From a virus: DNA of 64,000 nt. This document shows positions 39,547 through 53,140 of this stretch, piece by piece (within the stretch, counting starts at the first letter, position 1; each line of letters starts with the position of its first letter). The stretch lies in the IMG/VR virus record IMGVR_UViG_3300027733_000049, positions 1 through 64,000 of that record, one strand, 5' to 3'. The translations under genes and the position numbers were made by a program. Below the pieces are notes generated by a model. That model did no database searches, was not told the origin of the DNA, and saw only the letters and a list, made by a program, of their open reading frames with translations.

Positions 39547-40170
39547 TTAACCTCCAAACATTTCTTTAAGTGCGATGTGTAACGCACGGGCTTGCTTGAC
39601 CGTCAGGCTATCAAGCACATCATCCACGCTCCATTCAGTAGGTTGCTCGACCTTTGTACTGTTAGCCTTGAACTTCTCTACCAAGTCTGAGATGGAATGG
39701 TTTTCGTACTGTACGAAACTCTTAGGCATTTCTTTCATTGCCTTCTTCTGCTCCTTCACAGCACGGGCATGGGCGGCACGGGCTACCGCCTTACTACGTT
39801 CCTCTTTAGCTTTTGCCTGTAATGTTTTACGGTCTGCTTCAGGAATCACCGTGTACGCATAGACGTAACGCCCATCAATACGTTCTGTTGATTGCGAACG
39901 GGTAACATAAAACCTATCCGAAAACTGCTTGAGCATTGATGATGTAAAACTCAACGGTACATCGGGATGTAACACCGACAACTTGTTACGTAATCCAATG
40001 CTAGTGATTCCCGGGTTCTGCTCAATAACCGCCAATATACGATTTGTTATAGAGCTTTGTTTCTTCTCGTCTTTAGTTGTGTTTACCACTTTAATTTCCT
40101 CCTGTTGTGATTGATCTTCCTCGTCCCACATTTGTAGAACTTTCTTCATTTCGTCAGCTATTGATCCCAC
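39547..40170 (-). CDS. hypothetical protein, winged-helix-like centre
   Basis: 207 residues, GTG start with GGAGG upstream. Acidic N-terminus, then SSITNRILAVIEQNPGITSIGLRNKLSV, which looks like a winged helix (about 40-95), then a Lys/Ala-rich helix (AKEERSKAVARAAHARAVKEQKKAMKE) and an acidic helical end. A palindrome copy (39702-39718) lies inside the frame at the codons for SFVQYEN. Probably DNA-interacting. Confidence 0.65.
   Translation of the reverse strand: MGSIADEMKKVLQMWDEEDQSQQEEIKVVNTTKDEKKQSSITNRILAVIEQNPGITSIGLRNKLSVLHPDVPLSFTSSMLKQFSDRFYVTRSQSTERIDGRYVYAYTVIPEADRKTLQAKAKEERSKAVARAAHARAVKEQKKAMKEMPKSFVQYENHSISDLVEKFKANSTKVEQPTEWSVDDVLDSLTVKQARALHIALKEMFGG
39702..39718. promoter_or_regulatory. 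17-bp palindrome inside gene
   Basis: TTTCGTACTGTACGAAA inside the 39547 gene; the leftmost copy, more than 5 kb from the next. Confidence 0.75.
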
Positions 40171-40656: not shown

Positions 40657-41259
40657 TCAAATTTTCATAAGAGTTGTGTTGTCTCCGGTAGCTACTGTCG
40701 TGTAGCCCAATTCTTTGTACTTCAATATGGTGTCTACCACTTCTTTGGGAGAGGTCAAAGAATTCGATTCAAATTTAATTATCTTTGCCGGTCTGCTTTT
40801 TTCTTTCTTGAGTACTTCCAAATAACTGGACAGAATCACGCAGTCATGCCCTTCAGTATCTACCTTTAACAAAGCGCAGTCATCTACTTGATACATACCA
40901 AACAATGTCTCAACAGAATACATTGGGATTTGTTTAGATGTGAACACATCAACTGGATCAATGTTTCTTTTTGTTAAAACTTTTACAACTGTGGGGTGAT
41001 ACGAACTGATACTGTTACAACCACGTACCCACCAAGGTAAGCCATGTTTGCTTATGACCTCTTCTGATAAATAAAATACTTCTGCCACACCATCGTGATC
41101 TGATATTGCGGATAGTACTTTATGCACATGGGGTTTACATGGCAACCTGTTAAGGTAATAAAGTATTGGATCGACTGACAGCCCTATTGAATCGTCCATA
41201 CATTTTTGAATCACAGTATCAAAATCAGATGTACCTATTTCAATAAAGTCATACTTCAT
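40657..41259 (-). CDS. FkbM-family methyltransferase
   Basis: 200 residues. FIEIGTSDFDT (SAM-binding loop with Gly-x-Ser), then ALLKVDTEGHDCVIL, the diagnostic FkbM motif. Preceded by a segment with HKVLSAISDHDG. O-methylation of sugars or peptides is the family activity; here, alongside two glycosyltransferases, it may decorate a glycan. ATGA overlap with the preceding gene. Confidence 0.85.
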   Translation of the reverse strand: MKYDFIEIGTSDFDTVIQKCMDDSIGLSVDPILYYLNRLPCKPHVHKVLSAISDHDGVAEVFYLSEEVISKHGLPWWVRGCNSISSYHPTVVKVLTKRNIDPVDVFTSKQIPMYSVETLFGMYQVDDCALLKVDTEGHDCVILSSYLEVLKKEKSRPAKIIKFESNSLTSPKEVVDTILKYKELGYTTVATGDNTTLMKI

Positions 41260-41459
41260 CGCTTCATACCTCTTACATAAGCGGCAAAACTCATAGCAGT
41301 ATCACCAAAGTATTTCATGGCATCAAACTCCTTGGCAACTTCTTCTATCGTGGCGTTGCGTATCTCATCTACCAACCCAACCTTTACGGTATGTTCTTTG
41401 TCACGGTAATCGTAGTGTGCGCAACCACGTTCCCAACAACCTTTGTCCATTAGCGTCAT
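41256..41459 (-). CDS. hypothetical protein
   Basis: 67 residues, ATGA overlaps at both ends. Starts MTLMDKGCWERGCAHYDYRDKEH, with two Cys, followed by helical NATIEEVAKEFDAMKYFG. No family recognised. Confidence 0.6.
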   Translation of the reverse strand: MTLMDKGCWERGCAHYDYRDKEHTVKVGLVDEIRNATIEEVAKEFDAMKYFGDTAMSFAAYVRGMKR

Positions 41460-41779
41460 GTGTTCTTCTCCTTGAGTTTGGCTTCAATGGCTCGGGCAAA
41501 TTCAAACCTGTTTGCGTATGGCATCGTATTACTGATGGCAAATATTTCCGCATCATCCGTCAGCCCTACCCACTTACGTTCAGGCAATGGATGCCCTGCG
41601 TGTTTGTAGGCTTCGTCACGCCAAAGTTGCGCTCGTTGTTTGTTGTACTCACAGCTTGGGCAAGGGCGCACGTATTCTTGAATGTCATCATCCTCCATAG
41701 TTATCTGCATTTGTATTTGTCGTTTACGCCAACCACTTTGAATCTTCTCAACATCTTCGGGTGTGTGTGATCTTTTCAT
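41456..41779 (-). CDS. hypothetical protein
   Basis: 107 residues. Basic N-terminus (EDVEKIQSGWRKRQIQMQ), CPSCEYNKQRAQLWRDEAYK with a single CxxC, then helical NRFEFARAIEAKLKEK. Possibly zinc-binding with partner residues elsewhere. No family recognised. Overlaps next gene by 4 nt. Confidence 0.6.
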   Translation of the reverse strand: MKRSHTPEDVEKIQSGWRKRQIQMQITMEDDDIQEYVRPCPSCEYNKQRAQLWRDEAYKHAGHPLPERKWVGLTDDAEIFAISNTMPYANRFEFARAIEAKLKEKNT

Positions 41780-41800
41780 CTTGGTGCATCCTCATGGTTA

Positions 41801-42805
41801 TCAGGGTTGAACTTCGGTTGCTTCGTACCCTTGTCTTTCGGGTTCGGAAACGGGGGGAACGGTGGTGTCATTCTTTTTCTCCTCTTCCCAAGCGGTTCGC
41901 AATGCTCTACCACTTAGCTTTTTGTTTAAATAATCTATGCCTGAAAATTCAATGTACTCTTGCATGGTGCGTACTCTGCCTAACCCATACACTCCCATAT
42001 CTTTACCGTTAACCAAATCTTCAAGCCGCCTTGTTGTACGCTTTTGTAATTCACCCCAATGTACAACTCGTTCTTGGGTAATATCTTTATCCCAGTGCCT
42101 CGGACGCTCCCCATACAAATGGTGCATAGGAAGGTGTGGCACATGAAATATGTCGTAGCCATGCGTAAATGCTCTTAACGCCATGGCTTGTTCCTCTCCA
42201 TTGAAATACATATACGGGTCGTATGGCACATCGTACACAAACTTACCCTGTGTAAAAAGGCAACCACCCGCAAGGTGTATCCCACGAATCGGTGTATCAC
42301 GCTTAACTCTCGTTGCTACAAACTTCAGCTTCGAATGTTTAGGTTCGAACTGTTGTGCTTTGGATGAAACAATATGTACCAACACCTCCCTGCACATACG
42401 CCTCACAATCTTTCCCTCCTTGCGTTCAAACGATGCAGGGTAACTAGACACTATGCACTTGGGGTTTATCTTTGCACACTCGGTAGCGGCATTGATTAAC
42501 TTCTCATCCCAATCTTGGTCGAATACTGAATGAGCATCGATCTGAAAGAACCAATCCTCATCGTTGTACATCGCCATACATAATGACCTTGCCCAACACG
42601 CACCTCGAGATTCTCTTGGATCAATACCAACATACTGAATCTTCTTGCTCAGTGCATCGCTCACCTTGAGTCGCTCGTTTTCATACGCTTGTTCTACAAC
42701 ACCAAACGACAAACCATTTGGGTCTTTCGCCTTATTCAATGCTTGCAGTACGGTGTGTTTAAGCATCTCATCTCGGTAGGATGCGATGCTGATGTAGATG
42801 CTCAT
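41801..42805 (-). CDS. GlcNAc-type glycosyltransferase
   Basis: 334 residues. IYISIASYRDEML at the start, RGACWARSLCMAMYNDEDWFFQIDAH with the metal-binding D-A-H at about 90-92, then RGIHLAGGCLFTQGKFVYDVPYDP, YFNGEEQAMALRAFTHGYDIFH. This is the layout of the Skp1-type GlcNAc transferase family (GT60), found also in large viruses. The C-terminal ~35 residues are disordered. Transfers GlcNAc or a related sugar to an unknown acceptor. Confidence 0.85.
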   Translation of the reverse strand: MSIYISIASYRDEMLKHTVLQALNKAKDPNGLSFGVVEQAYENERLKVSDALSKKIQYVGIDPRESRGACWARSLCMAMYNDEDWFFQIDAHSVFDQDWDEKLINAATECAKINPKCIVSSYPASFERKEGKIVRRMCREVLVHIVSSKAQQFEPKHSKLKFVATRVKRDTPIRGIHLAGGCLFTQGKFVYDVPYDPYMYFNGEEQAMALRAFTHGYDIFHVPHLPMHHLYGERPRHWDKDITQERVVHWGELQKRTTRRLEDLVNGKDMGVYGLGRVRTMQEYIEFSGIDYLNKKLSGRALRTAWEEEKKNDTTVPPVSEPERQGYEATEVQP

Positions 42806-42993
42806 TGGTTGTTTGCTTCCCGCATTATGTCGTTGATAATTTTCTTGATCTTTCCATACGCATCTGCCTTGGTGTATGGCATCTGCAATATGCTTTCGAT
42901 CTCACGCAAAGCGTCATAGTATTCACCACCCTTCATTGCGTGCTGTAACTTATCCTCGTCCTCGGGGTAGGCAAATTCAAGTACTGCTTTCAT
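42802..42993 (-). CDS. small helical protein
   Basis: 63 residues: MKAVLEFAYPEDEDKLQHAMKGG, YYDALREIESILQM, then IKKIINDIMREANNQ. All-helical and charged. Overlaps the next gene by 4 nt and the previous by 17 nt. Resembles short phage proteins of unknown function near polymerase genes. Confidence 0.65.
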   Translation of the reverse strand: MKAVLEFAYPEDEDKLQHAMKGGEYYDALREIESILQMPYTKADAYGKIKKIINDIMREANNQ

Positions 42994-43168
42994 TTACTCT
43001 CTCGCTTATTGGTGTCCACCCAAACCGTTTCCATGTGGCTTGCACATCTGCACCAGTTGTCCACACATATCGTGGATCATTGGCAGGAATGGTTGGCTCT
43101 GTGCGCTTAGAGAAAGGCACGGGGGGTAGTGGTATAGCAGGGTACGTATATTTAGGCTGTGCGCTCAT
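42977..43168 (-). CDS. small proline-rich protein
   Basis: 63 residues; Pro-rich first half (PAIPLPPVPFSKRTEPTIPAND) then RYVWTTGADVQATWKRFGWTP, a short Trp-containing segment. GGAGAT before the ATG. No family recognised. Confidence 0.6.
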   Translation of the reverse strand: MSAQPKYTYPAIPLPPVPFSKRTEPTIPANDPRYVWTTGADVQATWKRFGWTPISERVNESST

Positions 43169-43463
43169 GTTGATCTCCTTCTTCTATGTAATACAAACGG
43201 TCGTGGACTTTGAATCCAACGCCCTTAATTAAGTTTCCCTCGGGTGCTATCCGCAAGATAGACACCGCCTCCATGATCCATCGTTCAACATCCTCTTGCG
43301 GGATATTTTTTCTTATCTTATTGTCATTAACACTTGGCATTGTAAAGTCTACTACATCAAATGTACCATCGTCATTGATAGAAACCCTATAACTATCACC
43401 TTTTGTTTCTATCATGTTGATCATTACTTCCATCCAAACATCCTTAGCTTCTTTGTAGTTCAT
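43152..43463 (-). CDS. hypothetical protein
   Basis: 103 residues. N-terminal helix with Met (WMEVMINMIETKG), then beta-like YRVSINDDGTFDVVDFTM, and a C-terminal VGFKVHDRLYYIEEGDQ. ATGA overlap with the gene before. Unknown. Confidence 0.6.
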   Translation of the reverse strand: MNYKEAKDVWMEVMINMIETKGDSYRVSINDDGTFDVVDFTMPSVNDNKIRKNIPQEDVERWIMEAVSILRIAPEGNLIKGVGFKVHDRLYYIEEGDQHERTA

Positions 43464-44341
43464 ACGAACACCCAGTACTTATCATTGTCGATCTTGTAGC
43501 CAACATCCATGAGTGCAGTCTTACTACCTTCGTTGATCTGCAACACCGCAATCTTATCCCTGATACTCTCAGGAACATCTTGTAGGTTGAACACTACGGT
43601 AGGCTCAGTGTCTCCCTCGTAGCGATACTCAACCTTATCGGTCTTAGCCCACACAAAACACTTGCGTGGTTTGTAGTTATCCATAGCTTGTAACTCTGCA
43701 CCTTGCTCTCTCAAGATGTGTAGGCTTTTCCTAAATGATTCTGTGGCGGGGGTATAGCCTGCTTGCACCATGAAATGCAACTCTTTAAGTATGTCGTCCC
43801 TCTGCATACGGGACGCTTCATACAACTTGTTCTGTGCAGGTTCTTTCATGTTGGCTATCGCACGCTCTAGATCAACGCCTGTCGATGCTACTACTTCAGT
43901 AAATGATTTAGGCTTGAGATACTGAAGTGCGTTCTTCACACCATTGGCAAACTTCTTGGTTGTCTTGATGCGATACCCCTCGCTGTACGATGCGTACTTC
44001 TCATTCATGATGCGGTCGGACTCCACAACATACATCATTTCTTTCTTGTCATTTAACTCAAGACCAATCTTACCAACACGCACAGTTGGGCAGTCCCTAT
44101 ACGCAACCGCTAAGTCTGCAAATACAAAGTACTCCAAGCCGTTGTACCGTGCGGGGCGGTAATCAGTATGCACAATCATGTCGGATCGTTTGTACTTGAT
44201 CTCGTTATAGAACTTCAAGAGTGTGCCTGTCACGGGAATATCACCAAGCCAAAACCCGTGGTTGTTTTGCTTGGCAGTATCAATGAGCGACACCAAACGG
44301 TCGTACTCGTATGTACCTTTGTAATCGTCTTTGCTAATCAT
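43460..44341 (-). CDS. hypothetical protein
   Basis: 293 residues from ATG 44341, preceded by GGAGGGCTTAA. Features: KRSDMIVHTDYRPARYNGLEYFVFADLAV, KIGLELNDKKEMMYVV, a helical middle, and a final DVGYKIDNDKYWVFV strand. No catalytic motif recognised. It forms a coupled group with a tiny membrane peptide and the gene at 44442. Confidence 0.65.
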   Translation of the reverse strand: MISKDDYKGTYEYDRLVSLIDTAKQNNHGFWLGDIPVTGTLLKFYNEIKYKRSDMIVHTDYRPARYNGLEYFVFADLAVAYRDCPTVRVGKIGLELNDKKEMMYVVESDRIMNEKYASYSEGYRIKTTKKFANGVKNALQYLKPKSFTEVVASTGVDLERAIANMKEPAQNKLYEASRMQRDDILKELHFMVQAGYTPATESFRKSLHILREQGAELQAMDNYKPRKCFVWAKTDKVEYRYEGDTEPTVVFNLQDVPESIRDKIAVLQINEGSKTALMDVGYKIDNDKYWVFV

Positions 44342-44343
44342 GA

Positions 44344-44445
44344 TTAAGCCCTCCAATAAAATAAATCTAACAACACAACAACTAGACCGAGTAAAAATAC
44401 TACTCGCTCTACCTTATCAATCCATGTCCAGTTATTCCAACTCAT
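44344..44445 (-). CDS. 33-residue membrane peptide
   Basis: Short frame with GGAGAGTC before the ATG and start overlapping the previous TGA (ATGA). Product MSWNNWTWIDKVERV followed by VFLLGLVVVLLDLFYW, one transmembrane helix. Its stop lies just ahead of the following gene's ATG. Likely translated in the early operon; a host-membrane role is a guess. Confidence 0.65.
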   Translation of the reverse strand: MSWNNWTWIDKVERVVFLLGLVVVLLDLFYWRA

Positions 44446-45419
44446 TTGACTCTCCTTCCATTTGAATAAAACGGTACGCCTACATCCACTGCCACTTGTT
44501 TGTATGGTTTTGTTAGTCGATATAGATACTCACCACGCAACCTACTCTCAAGATGCTCACGGTCAGGGTATGTAGGTTCTGACACATGATTACTACCTGA
44601 CCAAGTATGCTTCCACCTAGTATGTATAACAAACATCGCCTCAACTGCGTGCATCCACTTCTCACCAAACTCTTCGCCTTCGTTACGCACCAACCAATCG
44701 GCTTTGTCTAAAAGTTCATCCATGCTGTGCTTAAATCGCCAATCTCTGTTCTCATTCTCGGGTGTTACAAACGGACTCATGATCTCGTAGTAATTTAAGA
44801 ACGGCTCAAGTTCTTGGTACACCTTCTTAACTTTCTCACGATCAATCAACAACTTGTGTTCGGGTATGCCACCAATAACTTCGTAGAATGTTTTACCCTC
44901 ACGTTCGTACGGTACGAAAGTCATTCTCTGCCCATCTTGGTAATAGTAGTTCTTCGAGCCATCGGGTTGATCTGCACACACATATTGTTTAGAACCAAAC
45001 TTAACGTAACTAAGCCCTCTTGGAAACAACGCGCCTAACATACCCCATGTAGTGTATGTGTGCATCCATTTAGGTGTGAACTCAAAACGCCCATCGGGGC
45101 AAACCATCAATACTGGATAGTAATCTTCAGCGTACCCTGTCACAGTAACTTTGCCTGTCGCTTGATCTCGTGAATGATTTGCATAGACCGAGCAAAACGC
45201 CATGCCGTACTTGTCACCCTCTTTACGCCATATCTCGAACGTACGATGACGATCAGTCAATGGACGATGATCTGTCATGCCATGCTTTACACGCTGACCA
45301 ATCAATGGCTTGACGCTCTCATACTTCTTTTTGGTTGTCTCGTAATCAACCATGCAGATGTTGTACCCACGATAACCAAGCCTATCGTAAACACTAGAAG
45401 GTTCCGGTAATTTTTTCAT
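44442..45419 (-). CDS. hypothetical protein, possibly part of MoxR/VWA module
   Basis: 325 residues, aromatic-rich (YRGYNICMVDYETTKKKYE, GYAEDYYPVLMV, YYYQDGQRMTF). No family recognised. Like the three genes upstream of it, it is preceded by the 17-bp palindrome (45452-45468, 33 nt before the start) and AAAGGAAC, so it may be co-regulated with the DUF3150/MoxR/VWA genes. A degenerate palindrome also lies within it at 44903. Confidence 0.65.
   Translation of the reverse strand: MKKLPEPSSVYDRLGYRGYNICMVDYETTKKKYESVKPLIGQRVKHGMTDHRPLTDRHRTFEIWRKEGDKYGMAFCSVYANHSRDQATGKVTVTGYAEDYYPVLMVCPDGRFEFTPKWMHTYTTWGMLGALFPRGLSYVKFGSKQYVCADQPDGSKNYYYQDGQRMTFVPYEREGKTFYEVIGGIPEHKLLIDREKVKKVYQELEPFLNYYEIMSPFVTPENENRDWRFKHSMDELLDKADWLVRNEGEEFGEKWMHAVEAMFVIHTRWKHTWSGSNHVSEPTYPDREHLESRLRGEYLYRLTKPYKQVAVDVGVPFYSNGRRVK
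44903..44919. promoter_or_regulatory. 17-bp palindrome, one mismatch, inside gene
   Basis: GTTCGTACGGTACGAAA (first base differs). Lies within the 44442 gene at the codons for TFVPYE. Confidence 0.6.
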
Positions 45420-45451
45420 GATGTTCCTTTCAAAAAATAATGAATGGGAAG

Positions 45452-45468
45452 TTTCGTACTGTACGAAA
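45452..45468. promoter_or_regulatory. 17-bp palindrome
   Basis: TTTCGTACTGTACGAAA, with G/C flanks extending symmetry to 19 bp; 33 nt before the start of the 44442 gene. Confidence 0.85.
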
Positions 45469-45491
45469 CCGCCCTCAGAGATACCTGTAAC

Positions 45492-46673
45492 TTAGTCAAC
45501 GTAGATGACTGCACCAGTAGTAGGTGTGGGCTTGTACCCACCGACAACACACCACAAGACGGGATGTTCCCACTTGCCCCAACTACCGACATAACCATCG
45601 GTCAACACGACAACACACTCGGGCTTGATGCCACGTTCCTTGATGTACACGGGGATACACGCAGGATCAGTACCACCGCCACCCGCAGGCTTAGTTGATG
45701 ACACCAATTTATCTTGGTGATCACGGTCATATACTTCATGACCTGCAACCTCTGTGTCCCAGTACAACAGATCAACAAGTTCAGGTGAGACGTTGGCACA
45801 GATAGCCTGCACCTCAGTCAGAAACTTGTTCACCTCTGTATCACCAATAGAGCCTGACATATCGACACCAATTACGATACGCCCCATGCTCTCGGACACA
45901 GTAGAGGGCATATACATATCGTGCTGTAACCATCTACGATTAACACGTTGCCATGTGGATATATCCTTACCCACAGCCAATGATGAGATGAAGTCACGCA
46001 ACTGTTCACGCCAGTCAACCTTGGGTTCGAGCAACGCACCGATCTCACGGGACAAGTTACCACCCATCTTGCCTGCATGGATTTGACCTTGACGGATTGC
46101 TTGGTTCACCTCTTTGATGTGATCCTCAATCTCTTGCTGTGTCATGTCGCCTGTGTCCCAATCGTGTGAGTCAAAGCCACCTGCACCCTCATCACCATCT
46201 TCACCGCCACCACCCCCACCGCCTTGCTTGAGGATGTTGAATACTTCCTGTGAGTCCATGCCACGGAACTTCTCGCTGAGTAAGCCCATCTTAGGTAATA
46301 CAACAAACCCATTCGTTGCCTTCTCAATGTCCTTGATGATGAGGTTGATCACATAGTCACAAGCCATGTTCGCACACTTAGCGTGTTCCTCATACAGATG
46401 CTTCCACAAGAACGTATGCTGAAACAACTTGTGTAGATTCTCATGCAAGATAACGCCACGCAACTCAGCATCGGGCAGAGCTTCAACAAACTCTTTGCCA
46501 TAGATACAGTCGATGCCGTTGGTGCAAGCTGTTGGCACAGTCTCATCTACACGGTACTTGCCTACCATAATGACGCCTGCATACTCCATCGTTGCCTTGT
46601 GTGCCATTAACTCCACATGAGCACGCTCAATGCGCTTAAGCGCAGTTAGAGATTGTGTTGCTGTTATAAACAT
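45492..46673 (-). CDS. VWA-domain protein with peptidase-like N-terminus
   Basis: 393 residues. N-terminal DUF2201-type metallopeptidase-like domain with HENLH at 77-81 and CANMACDYVINLI. A Gly/Asp-rich linker (about 151-168) leads to a C-terminal VWA domain with MIDAS DMSGS at 271-275 and PAGGGGTDP. The MoxR ATPase gene is upstream in the transcript: this pair is a MoxR-VWA system, known to remodel proteins or load metal in other settings. CobT-like function is an alternative. Confidence 0.85.
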   Translation of the reverse strand: MFITATQSLTALKRIERAHVELMAHKATMEYAGVIMVGKYRVDETVPTACTNGIDCIYGKEFVEALPDAELRGVILHENLHKLFQHTFLWKHLYEEHAKCANMACDYVINLIIKDIEKATNGFVVLPKMGLLSEKFRGMDSQEVFNILKQGGGGGGGEDGDEGAGGFDSHDWDTGDMTQQEIEDHIKEVNQAIRQGQIHAGKMGGNLSREIGALLEPKVDWREQLRDFISSLAVGKDISTWQRVNRRWLQHDMYMPSTVSESMGRIVIGVDMSGSIGDTEVNKFLTEVQAICANVSPELVDLLYWDTEVAGHEVYDRDHQDKLVSSTKPAGGGGTDPACIPVYIKERGIKPECVVVLTDGYVGSWGKWEHPVLWCVVGGYKPTPTTGAVIYVD

Positions 46674-46709
46674 AATGATTTCCTTTCATGGTTAAAGATG
46701 TTGGGGGGC

Positions 46710-46726
46710 TTTCGTACTGTACGAAA
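46710..46726. promoter_or_regulatory. 17-bp palindrome
   Basis: TTTCGTACTGTACGAAA with C/G flanks, in the gap between the MoxR stop and VWA start, 37 nt before the start codon. Confidence 0.85.
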
Positions 46727-46749
46727 GGGGTCCCCACGATTTACTACTA

Positions 46750-47829
46750 TTACTTACGAGCAAACAAGTAATTGTTGTCAGCCGCCCACTTAGCGAATCT
46801 AGGATTCGTTGCCGCAATCGTACGCTTGGGACACATATCGGACATGACGCTACGAGCGAACAAGCCTTGTGCTTCCTTAGACATACGAGGTAAGAACTGC
46901 ATCCAAGCATCCATCGTGGACTTCTCAATGCGCTGTACCGCTTTGGCAATCAACATACAACCCGCAGGGGCAGATGTAGGTACAGTCGCAGTAGTTGGAG
47001 ACTTGATAAGGTCATCCCAGTTAGTCAACTGCGTATCCAACTTAATCATGGTCAACAAGTTGTGCATTGCCTTCTCACCTACTGTACCCTTCAGGGCATG
47101 ACACATCACATCGTCACCCAAGATCATGGTGCGCTTGATAACATCCGATGCTGTCTCTAAAGATCTTGGTGTAACGAACGCCATACGCACATCACGGGGA
47201 TCATTGATGTATGTGTTCTGACGTGGATCTTCGTAGTCCTCGAACGATGCCAACATCTCAGGGAACTCTTGCACAGTCGCAATGACCACAGGGTGAAAGC
47301 CATTGTTGATGCCGTACTGCATAACTTCTTCAGCATTAGGCTTGCCAACACGAACCTGAATCACACGGTTACGAGCATGGGGCGGTACGTTATCACCGAT
47401 ACCTTCTATCGATAAGTTGGTAGTCGCAAACACAATACCATCCAAGTCCCATATACCCAATGAACGCTCTTGCATAAGACGCAGGCAGGCATTGAGTACA
47501 CCGCCCTTGGCTTTGCCGATCTCATCGAGCATCATCACAACCTTCTTACCCTTGAAGTGCAAACCGAATTCCTCATTAGGCACAAAGCGGCACACCTCAA
47601 CACCATCAATGTCCTTGATCTTGGGAACCATGAAGTCACCAACATCTTTGGTAGTGATGTCAACGTAGCAAAAGAAATGATCCTTCAACTCAGGCTTGTT
47701 GCGTAGCATCTTCAGGATAGATGACTTACCAATACCCATCTCACCTTGCGCTAAGACGGTACGCACATCACCAACAGCCGCAATCAAGTCAGCAGTTTGT
47801 GACAGGGACAAAGATTTATACATAGACAT
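46750..47829 (-). CDS. MoxR-like AAA+ ATPase
   Basis: 359 residues. Walker A GEMGIGKSS at 29-37, Walker B VVMMLDEIGKA at 97-107, sensor 1 IVFATTNLS, Arg finger region VPPHARNRVI. Sequence style fits MoxR or CobS AAA+ proteins that partner with VWA proteins. The C-terminal ~110 residues form a helical domain without motif. ATP hydrolysis would drive substrate remodelling together with the VWA protein. Preceded by AAAGGAATC and, 67 nt upstream, a palindrome. Confidence 0.85.
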   Translation of the reverse strand: MSMYKSLSLSQTADLIAAVGDVRTVLAQGEMGIGKSSILKMLRNKPELKDHFFCYVDITTKDVGDFMVPKIKDIDGVEVCRFVPNEEFGLHFKGKKVVMMLDEIGKAKGGVLNACLRLMQERSLGIWDLDGIVFATTNLSIEGIGDNVPPHARNRVIQVRVGKPNAEEVMQYGINNGFHPVVIATVQEFPEMLASFEDYEDPRQNTYINDPRDVRMAFVTPRSLETASDVIKRTMILGDDVMCHALKGTVGEKAMHNLLTMIKLDTQLTNWDDLIKSPTTATVPTSAPAGCMLIAKAVQRIEKSTMDAWMQFLPRMSKEAQGLFARSVMSDMCPKRTIAATNPRFAKWAADNNYLFARK

Positions 47830-47895
47830 GGTTGATTCCTTTCAAAGAATTAAAAAACAACTTACACAATAAAACAACTAACACACAAGGGCAAG

Positions 47896-47912
47896 TTTCG
47901 TACAGTACGAAA
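47896..47912. promoter_or_regulatory. 17-bp palindrome
   Basis: TTTCGTACAGTACGAAA with G/C flanks; between DUF3150-like stop and MoxR start, 67 nt before the start codon. Confidence 0.85.
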
Positions 47913-47927
47913 CCGCCCACCCATAAC

Positions 47928-48797
47928 TTACAGAGAGAACTTGTCGAGCAACGCATCGACCTTGTTCTTGGTTTGCTCACGCAACATATCTGATTCACGC
48001 AATGACTGTGCATCTACATGACGCATGGTGTCCTCCAACTCCATACGCATGGCTTCCAACTTCAGATCACCACCGATGTTGAAGTGCTTGAGCAACTGAC
48101 ACAACTCAACAGCGTTATCTACAAGCGAGTCACGAAAGATTTTGCGCTTGCCATCTTCGGTATCACCAAGTCGCTCTGACATGGCAGTCAACACACCATG
48201 CAACCTATCCCACGCATCACGCATTGCATCGTTGAGCCGTGATGACAGCACACCTTCGTAATGATCCTGCATCTCACGCAAGCCTTCCTCACCAATGTCT
48301 ACACGAAAGTCACCTGCCATAGGCAATGGTGTAAACGCATATCGAAAGCCGAACTTGCCCACGATCTGATCACGGTGCGGATAGTCCTCACGATTGAATA
48401 GATCACCAAGTTGAAAAGCCGCCGCCGCAACAAGCGTGTCGTACTCATTAAGAAAGTTGTTGACAGATGTTGCGAACTGCGTCTCGTACTCGGACAGCCG
48501 TGACTTGTAGTCAATGAACGATGCCATGTTCAGCACACGATCACCGTTGTCACCCCATGGCTGTGTCACCGTGTAGTGCCATGTACGAATCGCACTCGCA
48601 ACTTTGTTGATCTCCTCCAACTTACCCGAACCTGCTAATAGGTTCTTGTTGTAGTTGCCCGCCCGAGTCTTGGTGCTGTTTTGTTGGTCAACTTCTTCAG
48701 AGACACGCTTGTCCAACTTACGCCCAGTCCATACGGACATAGACAGATTCACGATCAGGGCAGAGCCTGACAACTTAGATACGTTTACTTGTTCCAT
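47928..48797 (-). CDS. DUF3150-like protein
   Basis: 289 residues. N-terminal LIVNLSMSVWTGRKLDKRVSEEV, then TVTQPWGDNGDRVLNM, LGDLFNREDYPHRD and DFRVDIGEEGLREM, a pattern I recall for DUF3150; helical C-terminus. Such proteins occur next to phage MoxR-VWA pairs and may be the third subunit or adaptor. First gene after a perfect promoter at 48.9 kb, with a palindrome between. Confidence 0.75.
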   Translation of the reverse strand: MEQVNVSKLSGSALIVNLSMSVWTGRKLDKRVSEEVDQQNSTKTRAGNYNKNLLAGSGKLEEINKVASAIRTWHYTVTQPWGDNGDRVLNMASFIDYKSRLSEYETQFATSVNNFLNEYDTLVAAAAFQLGDLFNREDYPHRDQIVGKFGFRYAFTPLPMAGDFRVDIGEEGLREMQDHYEGVLSSRLNDAMRDAWDRLHGVLTAMSERLGDTEDGKRKIFRDSLVDNAVELCQLLKHFNIGGDLKLEAMRMELEDTMRHVDAQSLRESDMLREQTKNKVDALLDKFSL

Positions 48798-48835
48798 GAT
48801 ATTTCCCTTTCATGTTTCATTACATTTCAATATGC

Positions 48836-48852
48836 TTTCGTACCGTACGAAA
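48836..48852. promoter_or_regulatory. 17-bp palindrome
   Basis: TTTCGTACCGTACGAAA; 39 nt before the DUF3150-like start and about 33-49 nt downstream of the predicted start site of the 48.9-kb promoter. Confidence 0.85.
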
Positions 48853-48891
48853 CCACATCACCTTACACACAATACTACCTAACCAACCTAT

Positions 48892-48920
48892 ATTATAACA
48901 GATCAACATAGCTATGTCAA
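48892..48920 (-). promoter_or_regulatory. perfect sigma70-type leftward promoter
   Basis: On the - strand: TTGACA (48920-48915), 17-bp spacer, TATAAT (48897-48892), identical to consensus. It drives the DUF3150/MoxR/VWA module separately from the main early promoter. Confidence 0.85.
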
Positions 48921-48924
48921 TCTA

Positions 48925-49125
48925 TCACTTACTGGCACGTGATTCAACTTCAGCCCGTGCCTTCTTGCACTCACGCACAAACGTCTCCCGATCCTCATCG
49001 TTGTCGATGAAGTGCGTAATAAATTTGCGTGCGGCATGAACTTCCCGCTTGGCGTCAATCAAGAAACCTGTAACCAGTACAGCCCACCCCAACAACACCA
49101 ACTCAATCAATGTGAACTCAATCAT
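48925..49125 (-). CDS. small membrane protein
   Basis: 66 residues from the ATG at 49125, with GGAGG 6 nt upstream. N-terminal TM helix (IELVLLGWAVLVTGFLI) then a soluble basic/acidic helix (AKREVHAARKF, DEDRETFVRECKKARAEVE). A single-pass inner-membrane protein, N-out or N-in not determined. Unknown role. Confidence 0.7.
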   Translation of the reverse strand: MIEFTLIELVLLGWAVLVTGFLIDAKREVHAARKFITHFIDNDEDRETFVRECKKARAEVESRASK

Positions 49126-49246
49126 GCTTACCTCCATTTAAGTTGTTACGTATTACCCACCGAGCGTCAATGCGACTAGCAAACCATTTGCTCAATCGTT
49201 GGCACTCGTACCCTTCACACTCATCCTGCAATAACCCGTACGTCAT
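49118..49246 (-). CDS. small protein (42 aa)
   Basis: Short frame beginning in an ATGA overlap with the gene before (GGGAGG upstream) and ending 8 nt into the following gene. Product starts MTYGLLQDECEGYECQRLSKW. Coupled on both sides, so real translation is likely; function unknown. Confidence 0.6.
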   Translation of the reverse strand: MTYGLLQDECEGYECQRLSKWFASRIDARWVIRNNLNGGKHD

Positions 49247-49479
49247 TCATCCTCCCATTTAATAACATTGCGTGTTTCATACTCAAACCATTCCTGTTGT
49301 GTGTACGGGAAACGCCCATACTCTTTGCGGAACATAACTGCATCGCAGTCAGGGCATCCCTTCATATACGTCTTGCATGGCTTGACGTCACGAATAAACC
49401 ACATCGTGTTGCTGTCACCCATGAATGGCGGGTTTGCCATGCGTGCCAATATCTTGTGCTTGTTCTTGCGTACTTTCAT
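49243..49479 (-). CDS. small Cys-containing protein
   Basis: 78 residues. Very basic start (MKVRKNKHKILARMANPP), MWFIRDVKPCKTYMKGCPDCDAV (three Cys, a possible half zinc site), aromatic middle, acidic end KWEDE. Unknown. Confidence 0.6.
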   Translation of the reverse strand: MKVRKNKHKILARMANPPFMGDSNTMWFIRDVKPCKTYMKGCPDCDAVMFRKEYGRFPYTQQEWFEYETRNVIKWEDE

Positions 49480-49482
49480 TTG

Positions 49483-49656
49483 TTAACCTCCTAAGTTCCA
49501 AGATTTAGGGGGTATCTGTTTCAATACCTCCCTTGCGCACTCAATGTCGTGAGACAAGGTTTCAATCATTGACCCCTCTTCTATGTAACTGTCGGCTGAC
49601 TGCATGAGGTTGTTCAACGCTTCACCTAACAGTTCAATCTTTTCTGCATCAGTCAT
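49483..49656 (-). CDS. small protein (57 aa)
   Basis: Short frame with ATGA overlap with the gene before it. Product MTDAEKIELLGEALNNLMQS, ... AREVLKQIPPKSWNLGG; helical, acidic. Reads like the small phage proteins of the DUF of 'TDAEKIELL' type. Function unknown. Confidence 0.65.
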   Translation of the reverse strand: MTDAEKIELLGEALNNLMQSADSYIEEGSMIETLSHDIECAREVLKQIPPKSWNLGG

Positions 49657-49889
49657 ATATCACTCCTTAAGTTCTTTTGGTTTGTTTGTTTTAGCGTGAT
49701 ACTTATTGCCGCTTTTGTAACGTACATATATCCGCCCTTTTGATACTCTTGCACCACAGTCCACGACTTGCGCTCTACTTGTGCGGCTTGCTCACCACAC
49801 ATCAAACACAATCGGTAACCATTACCCCACCGTTCGATGTGTATGTCATCACCACATTCACGGCACTCTCTCCAATCAGAATGGAACAT
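49653..49889 (-). CDS. zinc-ribbon protein
   Basis: 78 residues. Two CxxC pairs, ECRECGD and LCLMCGE, about residues 8-32, form a zinc ribbon; the rest is SWTVVQEYQKGGYMYV and a polar tail. GAGGAGAT before the ATG. May bind nucleic acid or a protein partner. Confidence 0.7.
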   Translation of the reverse strand: MFHSDWRECRECGDDIHIERWGNGYRLCLMCGEQAAQVERKSWTVVQEYQKGGYMYVTKAAISITLKQTNQKNLRSDI

Positions 49890-50250
49890 CTTGCATCTCC
49901 TCTACTACTTTCGTACTGTACGAAATCAAACCCACCGAACCTTCACGCTGTACTACCTGCATATCCTCCAAGCACAACGATGTGGTACGTACACATGGGT
50001 GTAGCTGTGTCTTGTGCTTAGTTGTTGTACGGCTGTACTTGGTGCTGTTCTCGTACCATGTGTCCGACAATGGCTCGTATATAAACAATGGGAAGTTGTA
50101 GCGATACGAATACACGACATACCGTTTCACAATGTCCCGTGTCCCGTCAATGCCTTGCTCGTACCACTCACTAAAGATGTTCGAACCTCTGAACACCTTG
50201 TGTTCTCTTACATACTCCCGAGCATCACGGTTTGCTATGTGCTTAGTCAT
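49876..50250 (-). CDS. hypothetical protein
   Basis: 124 residues from ATG 50250 with GGGGAAAC upstream. Contains NRDAREYVREHKVF, NIFSEWYEQG and YVVYSYRYNFPLFIYE; beta-rich middle. A palindrome copy (49909-49925) is inside its last part. The longer frame upstream covers the palindrome at 50261 and is not used. Confidence 0.6.
   Translation of the reverse strand: MTKHIANRDAREYVREHKVFRGSNIFSEWYEQGIDGTRDIVKRYVVYSYRYNFPLFIYEPLSDTWYENSTKYSRTTTKHKTQLHPCVRTTSLCLEDMQVVQREGSVGLISYSTKVVEEMQDVPF
49909..49925. promoter_or_regulatory. 17-bp palindrome inside gene
   Basis: TTTCGTACTGTACGAAA within the 3' end of the 49876 gene and about 20 nt before the start of the zinc-ribbon gene. Confidence 0.8.
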
Positions 50251-50260
50251 TTGTTTCCCC

Positions 50261-50277
50261 TTTCGTACGGTACGAAA
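50261..50277. promoter_or_regulatory. 17-bp palindrome
   Basis: TTTCGTACGGTACGAAA, in the short gap 11 nt ahead of the 49876 gene start, close to its ribosome site. Confidence 0.8.
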
Positions 50278-50282
50278 CCGCT

Positions 50283-50447
50283 TTACGCATACCATTTATA
50301 AATGCGGTGATACTCATCCACCACATCACCATACCCAAGTGTGAAAAGTAATTGGCACAAGACAACATCCGCTTCCTTGTGCGCTACCTCTACATCAAGG
50401 TCTTTCCCTAATGTCTTTAGCGTTTCGATTGCTTCTTCTCTCGTCAT
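50283..50447 (-). CDS. small protein (54 aa)
   Basis: Short frame with ATGA overlap with the gene before. Product MTREEAIETLKTLGKDLD..., helical, with LCQLLFTLGYGDVVDEY and KWYA at the end. A typical early phage small protein. Function unknown. Confidence 0.65.
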   Translation of the reverse strand: MTREEAIETLKTLGKDLDVEVAHKEADVVLCQLLFTLGYGDVVDEYHRIYKWYA

Positions 50448-50851
50448 TCCTCTACCTCCTGTGGTGTGTATGTCATGTCATAAAAACCTGATGCGTATTG
50501 GCTGTCCTGCTTGCCGAATCGGAAACCTACGTATCTGTACGTACCATCGGGGCGTTTGCTACACGCATAGAAAAACCCTTTCGGATACTGCGATCTGTAC
50601 AGCATGGCGTTCCTCGCCCATTGCGCACGGGTTTGTTCAATCCTTGCGTCTTTCCATTCATCGTAATAACCGCCTGCATACCAGTCGTTGATCTCGTATC
50701 GAGCACGATACAAGTCCCAGTCCTCATACTTGTGGTTTTGCAACCACTCAGGCACAACATCTGCAAGTGCGTTGTACATCTCGTAATCACTCAGCACGAT
50801 GCTGTCAGGGAACTCGCCCATCTGCGCTTCCAATAATGATTTGTATTTCAT
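50444..50851 (-). CDS. hypothetical protein
   Basis: 135 residues from ATG 50851, six nt after AGGGAG. Aromatic and charged: LSDYEMYNALADVVPEWLQNHKYEDWDLYRARY, then WARNAMLYRSQYPKGFFYAC and VGFRFGKQDSQYA. No family recognised. Confidence 0.65.
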   Translation of the reverse strand: MKYKSLLEAQMGEFPDSIVLSDYEMYNALADVVPEWLQNHKYEDWDLYRARYEINDWYAGGYYDEWKDARIEQTRAQWARNAMLYRSQYPKGFFYACSKRPDGTYRYVGFRFGKQDSQYASGFYDMTYTPQEVEE

Positions 50852-51030
50852 TTCCATTCTCCCTTCATTAACTTCTGTTCGTCACGTCTAGCTACTTTCA
50901 ACGCTTTCGTACGGTACGAATCTAGCTTGACATTATTCTGTCGGTCAGAAGTTGTATCGCTGACAAAGCCACACCACAACATCTTGTCACGATGTTTGTT
51001 ATTGATTAACTTGCGTTCGAGCTTGTTCAT
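50848..51030 (-). CDS. small basic protein, first of leftward operon
   Basis: 60 residues; AAAGGAC before the ATG. MNKLERKLINNKHRDKMLW then KLDSYRTKALKVARRDEQKLMK. Highly basic. A degenerate palindrome (50905) lies inside the frame. It is the first open frame after the leader from the 51.8-kb promoter. Confidence 0.65.
   Translation of the reverse strand: MNKLERKLINNKHRDKMLWCGFVSDTTSDRQNNVKLDSYRTKALKVARRDEQKLMKGEWK
50905..50921. promoter_or_regulatory. 17-bp palindrome, one mismatch
   Basis: TTTCGTACGGTACGAAT, last base differs; inside the 50848 gene. Confidence 0.65.
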
Positions 51031-51237
51031 GAGAGTCCTTTCGGTTGGTTGATTGAATAGTGGTCATGACGCCACCGCATAGCACACAACCAAGTGTGCT
51101 ACACGCTATCGTCTCTTACGGGTTAGAGTCAACATAACCCGCTGTCGTAATTGGTAGTTCTGTTGTGACTTGTACGCATGGCTTGAGCATTTGGTTTTTT
51201 ACTAACTGCGATAGTGTTTGTCGTTGCCACATCTCCC

Positions 51238-51254
51238 GTTCGTACAGTACGAAA
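51238..51254. promoter_or_regulatory. 17-bp palindrome, one mismatch
   Basis: GTTCGTACAGTACGAAA, first base differs. In the leader between the 51.8-kb promoter and the first gene. Confidence 0.65.
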
Positions 51255-51661
51255 GGCTTGGCTTCCTAGTGGTTGTTGGTATGTGTTCGGCATTGTCATA
51301 GGACATACTTCGGGTTTCCCCAAGATTGATAGTCCCGTGTTGTGTATATAGACAACACTCTCACATACATACTCCACGTTAGGGCTGTTGCGTTATTAGC
51401 GCAGAGCAACCCACACATTTAGGCAGTATCTACATTAGCTTGCACATCGCTATCGGTTGTGTTCGGTGCGATACAGCACACTACTAACCTACACCACGAT
51501 GTACTCCGACTGACTACGGAACGCCTATTCACTCCATGTAAGGTGTCATGGGTGAGTACATATCGTGGGCTTCGCAATCCATCCTATACATATACACCTG
51601 TCAACCTGTGGGCTTCTTGCATCAAGCAAGCGGCAGTTTGGTTCGTTGCGGTTACCCCAAC

Positions 51662-51678
51662 TTTCGTACAGTACGAAA
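51662..51678. promoter_or_regulatory. 17-bp palindrome
   Basis: TTTCGTACAGTACGAAA with C/G flanks, in the leader of the leftward operon. Confidence 0.8.
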
Positions 51679-51737
51679 GCCAGAGAGGTTGCAACTGGTC
51701 TAGCAGATTTTTAAAGAGCGTGTGGTGTACCACCGAC

Positions 51738-51754
51738 TTTCGTACTGTACGAAA
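51738..51754. promoter_or_regulatory. 17-bp palindrome
   Basis: TTTCGTACTGTACGAAA with C/G flanks, about 26-42 nt downstream of the predicted start of the 51.8-kb promoter. Confidence 0.85.
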
Positions 51755-51786
51755 GCGTCATAGGGAAATGTTCCAAATGAGCTTTA

Positions 51787-51815
51787 ATTATACTAGGTTT
51801 ACGCTACTTTGTCAA
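51787..51815 (-). promoter_or_regulatory. perfect sigma70-type leftward early promoter
   Basis: On the - strand: TTGACA (51815-51810), 17-bp spacer, TATAAT (51792-51787). Faces the leftward operon beginning at 51030. Same architecture as the 48.9-kb promoter, with a palindrome just downstream. Confidence 0.85.
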
Positions 51816-51856
51816 GCTGTTACTAGTTAGATATGGGGGGTATAACAGCACATTAG

Positions 51857-52159
51857 TTCTGCAATATTCTAGAGGGGAGAATAAAGGTAAGTCGTTGATT
51901 CATAAGGGTTTATTGATGCTTTTTTTTGTTTTATTCTAATATTCTTGGTTTTTGGGGTTAAGCGAGACAATAAGCAAAGGTGAACAAGAACACGAGAAAA
52001 CATCTGTGTGCATACACGTAAGAATGTATAAATACCAAAATAAATTTGGGGTGTATATATATTTATTTAAAGAATAATAGAATAATAGGGGTCAAAACCT
52101 TTGCAAGTGCTTGATTTCATTGAGGTTTGTTTTATTCTCATGCAGAGAATATTGCAGAA
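51857..52159. repeat. AT-rich segment bracketed by perfect 14-bp inverted repeat
   Basis: TTCTGCAATATTCT at 51857-51870 and its exact reverse complement at 52146-52159, separated by 275 bp of AT-rich DNA with further ATTCT/AGAAT runs and TATATATATTTATTT. Typical of replication-origin layouts, but no origin protein site is identified. Confidence 0.65.
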
Positions 52160-52196: not shown

Positions 52197-52213
52197 TTTC
52201 GTACAGTACGAAA
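52197..52213. promoter_or_regulatory. 17-bp palindrome
   Basis: TTTCGTACAGTACGAAA, just beyond the AT-rich segment. Confidence 0.8.
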
Positions 52214-52251: not shown

Positions 52252-52268
52252 TTTCGTACGGTACGAAA
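52252..52268. promoter_or_regulatory. 17-bp palindrome
   Basis: TTTCGTACGGTACGAAA, overlapping the end of the first AGGTTACAGGTTTC repeat. Confidence 0.8.
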
Positions 52269-52354: not shown

Positions 52355-52371
52355 TTTCGTACTGTACGAAA
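52355..52371. promoter_or_regulatory. 17-bp palindrome
   Basis: TTTCGTACTGTACGAAA, 8 nt after the second AGGTTACAGGTTTC repeat. Confidence 0.8.
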
Positions 52372-52494: not shown

Positions 52495-52507
52495 TTGGGA
52501 CTGAAGA

Positions 52508-53014
52508 TTACTTCAGTTTGATGCCAGAGGCTTCAAGGTAAGATTTGATCCCTTCATGCAAGGTATCAAACTCAGCGTTTTCATAACTTGTTTGCAAGTC
52601 ATCCATGAAGCCTTCGAAGTCAGCGTCACGATAAACAGTTGCCAGTTTATCTGCAAACTCTTTTTTGCCTTTGGCGGCATTGGACGTGCCGCCTGCTTTC
52701 TTAGCACGTTGCAAGTTCCAATCGGTGACTGGCTTGCCTGATTCGACCGCCTTTTTAAAGGTGGGCAAATAGGTTTTCTGCGCCGTGCTTTGAGTCAAGC
52801 CTGAAGCCATGCAACCATCGACAAAGGCAGTTGCCAAACCGCAACCAGTACCATCCTTTTTGTAAGTGCCAATCTTTGCCTTGGCTTTATGCAAAGCCAA
52901 GATGTTGTTATTGGCTTCAGTCTTAAAAGCTTCAGCAGATGCCAAAGCTTTATTCATGTTGCCAACAGATGCGCCACAGGCTTGCGCCAAGGATGTCAGG
53001 GAAAGTGCGCTCAT
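52508..53014 (-). CDS. isolated early gene, unknown function
   Basis: 168 residues from ATG 53014, preceded by AAAGGAAAC. Ala/Lys-rich helical protein: MSALSLTSLAQACGASVGNM, ALHKAKAKIG, KDGTGCGLATAFVDGCMASG, and an acidic C-terminal half (YRDADFEGFMDDLQTSYENAEFD). Own terminator downstream and a palindrome upstream (53124). Position at the head of the early region and its isolation suggest strong early or lysogeny-type expression. No domain recognised. Confidence 0.8.
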   Translation of the reverse strand: MSALSLTSLAQACGASVGNMNKALASAEAFKTEANNNILALHKAKAKIGTYKKDGTGCGLATAFVDGCMASGLTQSTAQKTYLPTFKKAVESGKPVTDWNLQRAKKAGGTSNAAKGKKEFADKLATVYRDADFEGFMDDLQTSYENAEFDTLHEGIKSYLEASGIKLK

Positions 53015-53123: not shown

Positions 53124-53140
53124 TTTCGTACTGTACGAAA
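53124..53140. promoter_or_regulatory. 17-bp palindrome
   Basis: TTTCGTACTGTACGAAA, about 110 nt ahead of the start of the 52508 gene. I could not find a clear consensus promoter near it. Confidence 0.8.

What the first reader, a model, noticed from the sequence alone, without database searches (positions are those of the whole stretch)
44442..48920. DUF3150 / MoxR ATPase / VWA module with its own operators and a fourth unknown gene
AAA+ (GEMGIGKS), VWA (MIDAS DMSGS, plus HENLH) and DUF3150-like proteins are adjacent and similarly arranged in other phages, function unsettled. Here every gene in 44442-48797 has a palindrome and an AAAGGA site before it, and a dedicated promoter, and the 325-residue gene at 44442 shares this design. 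This suggests a four-gene system, perhaps remodelling a host complex, metal-chelatase-like, or defence-like.
Basis: partly seen in the sequence, partly recalled or inferred. Interest (0 to 1): 0.72.

Follow-up and report, generated by a model that had tools for sequence, protein, structure and literature searches.

The report
Phage early-gene switch with swappable operators
The four neighbouring phage genes are real and three of them form a conserved set, but the repeated DNA signs in front of them belong to a virus-wide control switch, a small new protein and its matching palindromes, whose recognition code has been swapped again and again between related viruses.

Summary
DUF3150, MoxR-like AAA+ and HExxH/MIDAS vWA genes form one conserved, co-directional block (31 of 34 distinct related contigs). 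The 325-aa gene follows vWA in 10 of 30 near and 27 of 32 distant contigs: an old neighbour, not an obligatory fourth subunit. "A promoter per gene" fails: only DUF3150 has one.

The palindrome is not module-specific. The window holds 16 copies (TTCGTACNGTACGAA), all in the leftward early region. Relatives carry other palindromes at equivalent places, one class per phage, about 16 classes in all. One protein tracks the class: the 168-aa gene at 52508-53014, a family without Pfam match. Between contigs with near-identical core genes it diverges when the operator class differs; no other tested gene does. Residues in its predicted helix-turn-helix predict the class in 44 of 44 records with two or more sites (rule fitted post hoc; one held-out contig passed). 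One genome carries two paralogues and both operator sets.

I read this as a stoperator-like repressor network with switchable specificity, in phages without detectable integrase, controlling a MoxR-vWA-DUF3150 remodelling machine. Binding and repression are inferred.

The parts
47928..48797 (-). DUF3150-family protein, 289 aa, first gene of the operon
   Evidence: Pfam PF11348 E 1.5e-4; 14 of 15 homologues match; operator within 150 nt upstream in 35 of 35 contigs
46750..47829 (-). MoxR-like AAA+ ATPase, 359 aa, Walker A GEMGIGKS
   Evidence: phrog_1297 ATPase E 2.2e-37; Walker A and the DE of Walker B invariant in 17 sequences
45492..46673 (-). vWA protein with N-terminal HExxH metallopeptidase-like domain, 393 aa
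   Evidence: DUF2201_N and DUF2201; 24% identical to N4 gp25 over 380 columns, E 2e-20
44442..45419 (-). 325-aa uncharacterised phage protein, frequent downstream neighbour of vWA
   Evidence: 10 of 30 near contigs, 27 of 32 distant contigs; fold seen in uncharacterised Caudovirales proteins, BFVD E 1.9e-6
52508..53014 (-). g525: 168-aa proposed operator-binding regulator, predicted helix-turn-helix at residues 59-92
   Evidence: tracks operator class; AF2 pLDDT 84.8; no Pfam family
48892..48920 (-). consensus promoter TTGACA-17-TATAAT of the module operon
   Evidence: 12 of 12 positions
48836..48852 (.). operator, about +35 of the module promoter, 39 nt before DUF3150
   Evidence: exact palindrome
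47896..47912 (.). operator between DUF3150 and AAA+
   Evidence: exact palindrome
46710..46726 (.). operator between AAA+ and vWA
   Evidence: exact palindrome
45452..45468 (.). operator between vWA and the 325-aa gene
   Evidence: exact palindrome
44903..44919 (.). operator inside the 325-aa gene (15-bp core exact)
53124..53140 (.). operator 110 nt before g525 (autoregulation proposed)
   Evidence: exact palindrome
52355..52371 (.). operator in the non-coding early leader
52252..52268 (.). operator in the non-coding early leader
52197..52213 (.). operator in the non-coding early leader
51787..51815 (-). second consensus promoter TTGACA-17-TATAAT
   Evidence: 12 of 12 positions
51738..51754 (.). 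operator about +28 of the second promoter
51706..51719 (-). rrn-like boxA between two operators of the leader
51662..51678 (.). operator in the non-coding early leader
51238..51254 (.). operator in the non-coding early leader (15-bp core exact)
50905..50921 (.). operator at the 3' end of a small gene, 48 nt before the gene 50444-50857 (15-bp core exact)
50261..50277 (.). operator before a small early gene
49909..49925 (.). operator 20 nt before the gene 49653-49889
39702..39718 (.). most downstream operator, inside the gene 39547-40170

Best explanation
The palindromes are DNA operators of a phage-encoded dimeric regulator, the 168-aa protein g525. It is made from the first early gene and has an operator 110 nt upstream of itself. 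It binds all 16 sites of the leftward early region: about 30 nt downstream of the strong early promoters, and in gaps between genes far from any promoter. There it most likely blocks initiating and elongating RNA polymerase, as mycobacteriophage stoperators do, and so turns early transcription down. The DUF3150 operon is its most regularly controlled target. Specificity lies in a few residues of the helix-turn-helix and of the following [DE]W[NG] turn; they are exchanged between phages together with the operators. The controlled DUF3150, MoxR-like and vWA proteins most likely form one ATP-driven remodelling machine that acts early, during takeover or replication; the 325-aa protein is an optional partner. 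Shown here: the operators, their class switching, and their covariation with g525. Inferred: binding, repression, roadblock, and the function of the machine.
For: Each contig uses mainly one palindrome class, in 2-16 copies. Residues around YL..F and [DE]W[NG] of g525 predict the class in 49 of 51 records and in 44 of 44 with two or more sites. The class changes at least 10 times on a DUF3150+AAA tree of 35 contigs. In pairs with core similarity 0.93-1.0, g525 similarity is 0.75 (same class, n=30) against 0.39 (different class, n=9); the ten other families, two of which define the bin, differ by -0.03 to 0.05. One 60,129-bp record holds two g525 paralogues and both cognate operator sets. L023/L034, L101 and L027 share nearly the same C-terminal half but differ in the recognition region and in class. 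DNA rather than RNA: the innermost pair flanking the single central base is complementary in 312 of 313 sites, and the centre takes all four bases. AF2 gives helices 59-70 and 75-92 with the specificity residues in the second helix and its following turn. 54 strict promoters on the early strand, 2 on the other; 53 have a nearby operator, and 49 operator starts fall at +27 to +39 of an estimated start site. Further classes with g525-like genes in distant contigs and a palindrome network in isolate MinM2.
Against: No binding or expression data. The residue rule was fitted to the same contigs; only L138 was a held-out pass. L114 and L118, one operator each, break it. No known fold matched the g525 model. 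Stoperators of L5 are asymmetric and orientation-dependent (PMC9283540, passages); these are palindromes. No tyrosine integrase in 14 of 14 records, so the usual reason for such a repressor is missing. Only genes within about 8 kb were compared as candidate partners; a whole-genome comparison of five records was uninformative. In L188, L190 and others with operator arrays no g525-like gene was found in the held stretch.
Confidence: 0.7

Rival explanations
1. A four-gene system with its own operators: DUF3150, MoxR, vWA and the 325-aa protein form one complex and the palindromes mark it.
For: Gene order vWA then the 325-aa family is kept in 27 of 32 distant contigs; all four window genes have an operator upstream.
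Against: 20 of 30 near contigs lack it behind vWA; an operator precedes it only in the window and L005, and in none of eight other near contigs checked; 11 of 16 window operators lie elsewhere.
Confidence: 0.12
2. The palindromes act as RNA hairpins between genes (processing sites or control of translation), read by g525 or by a host factor.
For: They lie between genes of one transcript, often just before the ribosome site: 126 of 313 lie within 60 nt of an SD-ATG, against 16% at random places.
Against: The pair next to a one-base centre cannot form in RNA, yet it is complementary in 312 of 313 sites and changes as C.G to T.A between classes. The partner protein has a predicted helix-turn-helix. 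The fixed place at +27 to +39 of promoters suits DNA binding.
Confidence: 0.1
3. g525 binds the operators but is not a repressor: it activates, anchors an antitermination complex, or organises the early DNA.
For: The other early promoter is followed by an rrn-like boxA in 22 of 37 contigs, so factors that load on elongating polymerase may be at play; no integrase was found.
Against: Operators sit downstream of promoters that already match the consensus, a poor place for an activator; g525 has an operator before its own gene, as autorepressors do.
Confidence: 0.2
4. The MoxR-vWA-DUF3150 module is a cobaltochelatase-like (CobST) or a defence/conflict system carried as cargo.
For: Viral AAA+/vWA pairs have been called CobS/CobT and linked to cobalamin (PMC8651126, passages); MoxR-vWA conflict systems are described (PMC7159879, search listing only).
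Against: No PADLOC match for the six proteins tested and no NCBIfam match over its cut-off for the five tested; the trio is a regular part of the early side of these genomes, as N4 gp24-gp25 is, not sporadic cargo.
Confidence: 0.1

Closest known systems
Stoperators and immunity repressors of Cluster A mycobacteriophages (L5, Bxb1)
   Same: Many copies of one site spread through the genome and in short gaps between genes; one small phage protein; each phage group with its own site consensus; a site before the regulator's own gene (PMC6550527 and PMC9283540, passages)
   Different: Palindromic instead of asymmetric sites; no detectable protein relationship; no integrase seen; sites only in the early arm in the records listed; classes switched between near-identical genomes together with the recognition segment
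N4 gp24-gp25 (AAA+ ATPase and its neighbour), core genes of N4-like phages
   Same: Adjacent AAA+ and vWA genes upstream of helicase and DNA polymerase; gp25 is homologous to the window's vWA protein (24%, E 2e-20); gp24 (AAA+ ATPase) and gp25 stand in the panproteome table (PMC7650795, passage)
   Different: No DUF3150 annotated beside them in N4 or SBP1
MoxR-vWA pair with fused metallopeptidase in group 2.2 jumbo phages
   Same: Same pair and same N-terminal metallopeptidase fusion; chaperone role proposed (PMC7824862, passage)
   Different: There a role in virion assembly is proposed; here the genes lie in the early operon and are joined by DUF3150
Repeated intergenic motifs of Nostoc cyanophages A-1 and N-1
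   Same: A repeated motif between genes, 43 and 21 copies, stoperators suggested, no integrase (PMC4916379, passages)
   Different: Asymmetric motifs, no regulator identified

Membership tests
Stoperator/immunity-repressor system (L5 type) | One site type in many copies, many far from promoters, in gaps between genes | tested here: met
   16 in the window; 6-16 in each of 13 further records
Stoperator/immunity-repressor system (L5 type) | Asymmetric site oriented with transcription, bound by a monomeric repressor | tested here: not met
   Sites are palindromes, 312 of 313 complete to the innermost pair
Stoperator/immunity-repressor system (L5 type) | Temperate phage with integrase or partition locus | tested here: inconclusive
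   Tyrosine integrase PF00589 in 0 of 14 records, controls positive; serine integrase and ParABS were not searched for, and records may be fragments
Stoperator/immunity-repressor system (L5 type) | Regulator binds the sites and stops elongation | not testable with these tools
   Only covariation and a predicted helix-turn-helix
MoxR AAA+ ATPases | Walker A/B AAA+ core next to a vWA partner gene | tested here: met
   phrog_1297 E 2.2e-37; invariant GEMGIGKS; adjacent vWA. Pfam AAA_5 only E 0.034, under its cut-off
N4 gp24-gp25-like pair | Homology of the vWA partner and adjacency to AAA+ | tested here: met
   E 2e-20 to N4 gp25; gene order in N4
Cobaltochelatase CobST | CobS/CobT family match or a CobN partner gene | tested here: inconclusive
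   No Cob family among NCBIfam or Pfam hits; CobN was not searched for
Known anti-phage defence systems | Match to a PADLOC model | tested here: not met
   0 of 6 proteins at E<=1

The most novel reading that the evidence does not exclude
A large group of apparently lytic, mostly freshwater phages carries superinfection immunity without lysogeny: a small repressor of a new family silences the early region of any co-infecting phage of the same operator class, and this drives repeated class switching by exchange of the recognition segment, caught half-way in a genome with two regulators and two operator sets. The protein-operator pairs amount to a natural recognition code of more than a dozen specificities.
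Probability: 0.35. Interest if true: 0.86.

Novelty: new variant of a known kind. Interest (0 to 1): 0.72.

Why it matters
It gives a regulator, its sites and its specificity residues for a phage group known almost only from metagenomes, and an isolate with a comparable network (Synechococcus phage MinM2 and its twin records) for experiments. How immunity-type specificity switches is a long-standing question, studied in few temperate phages; here at least ten switches among 35 contigs, a likely domain exchange and an apparent intermediate can be tested directly. It also places the MoxR-vWA-DUF3150 module under early, tightly controlled expression, which argues against a purely late assembly role.

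Tried and rejected
Four-gene system: see rivals. Regulator candidates other than g525: ten other gene families within about 8 kb show no class effect; genes further away were not properly tested (the five-record comparison was uninformative because the genomes are too divergent; the 0.0 similarity of g525 between G008 and G007 there is an artefact of cutting G007 at 60 kb). Fold of g525: Foldseek and VIA-align on PDB gave nothing (best Z 4.1, rmsd 4.5, 85 residues, chorismate mutase), so its fold is open. Fold of the 325-aa protein: nothing in PDB; only uncharacterised phage proteins in BFVD. DUF3150 and AAA+ profiles: no PDB match; vWA: nothing credible. Close isolates by nucleotide: none; 325-aa protein and g525 in GenBank phages: none by tblastn; AAA+ in plasmids: two weak matches. 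The 325-aa protein alone as a viral-contig query: none confirmed. Rfam in the leader: nothing over gathering. Bacterial homes: the DUF3150 profile found 3 distant loci in genome contigs and no near relative, so no prophage of this lineage was seen. MinM2 MM2_92/MM2_72 as g525 relatives: no HMM hit; their likeness to each other was judged by eye. Contigs without detected DUF3150 were a control for palindromes: 21 such loci plus SBP1, HTVC027P and DSL-LC04 gave at most 5 copies, the same GCACCANNNTGGTGC in several, which I did not explain. Literature: searches showed me no report of these operators or of the g525 family; the library lacks most subscription papers. Dropped rows: the hit at 5186 (3 mismatches) was not counted as an operator; L250, L252 and L253 were left out as repeats of listed contigs; some of its 43 loci are still near-copies of each other; vWA starts were located in only 26 contigs and the window's own was missed by the script.
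Full report
What is in the window. The window is bases 1-64000 of a 74,238-bp virus record. No close GenBank phage exists by nucleotide; the large terminase is 47-57% identical to those of phage DSL-LC04, phage 023Pt_psg01, Pelagibacter phages HTVC027P and HTVC023P and cyanophage MinM2. Most structural genes run rightward and the early/replication genes leftward. The four genes of the finding are present as described, with two corrections: the SD of DUF3150 is AAAGGG, and only DUF3150 has a recognisable promoter, a full-consensus TTGACA-17-TATAAT at 48920-48892. That scan found 18 promoter-like sites in the region against 25.8 expected, so weaker matches carry no weight; the two full-consensus ones do.

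The module. In 34 distinct related contigs DUF3150, AAA+ and vWA lie in this order on one strand in 31; in L028 and L029 the contig ends first, and in L035 DUF3150 is not found. The trio is also adjacent in a Bartonella choladocola chromosome and a Hoeflea MAG and, in another order, in cyanophage MinM2. vWA homologues are found in 666 GenBank phages; N4 gp25 is homologous, and its neighbour gp24 is the AAA+ ATPase. PHROGs calls the vWA family 'HNH endonuclease'; the motifs are HExxH and MIDAS, so the label looks wrong. The 325-aa family follows vWA in 10 of 30 near contigs where the place can be read and in 27 of 32 distant ones, where DUF3150 is detected in only 12. It goes with vWA more than with DUF3150 and can be lost.

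The operators. The 15-bp core TTCGTACNGTACGAA occurs 16 times, from 39703 to 53139; 12 lie between genes and 4 inside reading frames as I drew them, two of these 20 and 48 nt before a next start. Related contigs have another palindrome at the same places: TTCATACNGTATGAA, TTCCCACNGTGGGAA or TTCATATNATATGAA. Each of 13 further large records has 6-16 such sites, reversed-pattern control 0 (its list of places was cut). Over 37 contigs I counted 313 sites by their six outer pairs; the seventh pair, next to a single free centre base, is complementary in 312, and the centre is C 126, T 72, G 60, A 55. A one-base loop is impossible in RNA, so a DNA dyad read by a dimer is the natural reading.

The partner. 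I asked which gene changes with the operator class. In contig pairs whose DUF3150 and AAA+ are nearly identical (similarity 0.93-1.0), g525 falls from 0.75 (same class, 30 pairs) to 0.39 (different class, 9 pairs); the ten other families with enough pairs differ by -0.03 to 0.05, and two of them define the bin. The recognition text is: TYL with DWN for GTAC; VYL or a one-residue-shorter NYL with DWN for ATAC; NYL with EWN for ATAT; KKTAQNYLSL with DWG for CCAC. I wrote this rule into the notebook before the next scan, but that scan brought only one new near contig with g525, L138, which passed. Over all records the rule is right in 49 of 51, and in 44 of 44 with at least two sites (34 distinct segments); L114 and L118 fail with one site each. 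The class changes at least 10 times on the core tree (shuffled mean 18.7), so common descent alone does not explain the match. Record IMGVR_UViG_3300022752_000073 has two g525 paralogues, one of each type, with ATAT sites at 3792, 59095 and 59980 and CCAC sites at 135, 1048, 1164, 1717, 2464 and 60096; the ATAT site at 3792 is the one before DUF3150. The nearly identical C-terminal halves of L023, L027 and L101 with differing recognition regions point to exchange of the DNA-binding part.

Structure. AF2 with 29 sequences (pLDDT 84.8, pTM 0.54) gives an all-helical protein: a long helix 6-43, then helices 59-70 and 75-92, a turn with D98-W99-N100, and a C-terminal bundle. T81 and D98-N100 (numbering) are where the classes differ. 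This looks like a helix-turn-helix with a dimerising helix, but no PDB fold matched, no Pfam family matched any of 29 members convincingly, and no NCBIfam model did.

How it may act. On the early strand of 37 contigs there are 54 promoters with at most one mismatch to TTGACA-(16-18)-TATAAT, on the other strand 2. 53 have an operator nearby and 49 operator starts lie at +27 to +39 of a start site taken as six bases after the -10 box. Operators lie within 150 nt before DUF3150 in 35 of 35, before AAA+ in 29 of 37 and before vWA in 13 of 26 contigs where the start could be placed. A site this far downstream, and sites between genes without promoters, suit a block to elongation. A boxA-like GCTCTTTAA(A/C)AA, as I recall it from rrn leaders, follows the other early promoter by 34-91 nt in 22 of 37 contigs; raw boxA counts alone are weak (41 early, 29 opposite, 18 shuffled). 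If the early polymerase is antiterminated, repeated roadblocks would make sense; this is inference. With no tyrosine integrase in 14 of 14 records and no near relative in the species genomes scanned with one query, lysogeny is not the evident purpose. Pure timing would not need class switching; conflict between co-infecting phages would. That is my boldest reading and it is untested.

How far it reaches. In 43 more distant DUF3150 loci (some near-copies of each other) 25 have a palindrome of their own in four or more copies and 29 in three or more, shuffles at most 2: TCCCTATNATAGGGA, TCGGGACNGTCCCGA, CTAGACNNGTCTAG, GATATACNGTATATC, GGGTACNNGTACCC, CGTTACNNGTAACG, TACTGTCNGACAGTA and others. 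An iterated g525 profile finds 15 members there (a few from repeated contigs), 11 with the operator 22-158 nt upstream. Isolate MinM2 has 12 exact GGTTCAGNCTGAACC in 26 kb, 21 with up to two mismatches, none in five shuffles; 10 of the 21 lie 18-28 nt before an annotated start codon. Its first early gene MM2_92 and MM2_72 before MoxR look like paralogues and are candidate regulators, without profile support.

Compared with what is known. The layout resembles the L5 stoperators (PMC6550527, PMC9283540, passages only), but site symmetry, protein family and probably life style differ. A repeated intergenic motif in Nostoc phages was suggested to be stoperators (PMC4916379, passages). The metallopeptidase-vWA-MoxR pair in phages was described for jumbo phages (PMC7824862, passage). 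I file the regulator as a new variant of the stoperator kind, and the trio as a DUF3150-bearing variant of the N4 gp24-gp25 type of pair.

Noticed in passing
window 51031-52507, boxA-like at 51706-51719 (- strand): About 1.5 kb with hardly any coding sequence, a consensus promoter, six operators, an rrn-like boxA and three GAAACCTGTAACC repeats near the operators; perhaps an antitermination leader or a non-coding RNA.
   Followed up: partly
window 52467-52496 (- strand): Strong intrinsic-terminator-like hairpin just after g525, so the regulator gene seems to be its own short transcript.
   Followed up: no
IMGVR_UViG_3300022752_000073 (G004; L101, L111, L027): Two g525 paralogues of different specificity and both operator sets in one genome, possibly an intermediate of class switching.
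   Followed up: partly
L023:1226: Hybrid operator TTCATATGGTATGAA, half ATAT and half ATAC, the only site of 313 with a broken innermost pair.
   Followed up: no
L212 (Synechococcus phage MinM2, OQ594354.1 34000-60000): Isolate with a palindrome network GGTTCAGNCTGAACC beside MoxR, DUF3150 and vWA; three records of 65,014 bp under different host names (MinM2, Pag-Yong1, Pra-JY27) give the same DUF3150 match.
   Followed up: partly
window 19406-19792 (+ strand): HINT (intein-like) domain inside an 818-aa protein of the structural region, PF07591 E 2.5e-8.
   Followed up: partly
window 7687-10891 (+ strand): Three consecutive ORFs built of the same short repeat (RGVFGGG....ITIATTGN..), apparently paralogous tail or fibre proteins.
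   Followed up: no
window 41801-42805 and 40657-41259 (- strand): GlcNAc-type glycosyltransferase (PF11397, E 1.9e-54) and a weak FkbM-methyltransferase-like protein inside the early operon.
   Followed up: no
L158, L163, L164, L165, L171, L174, L177, L178, L180: GCACCANNNTGGTGC in 2-5 copies in several contigs that have AAA+ and vWA but no detected DUF3150; meaning unknown.
   Followed up: no
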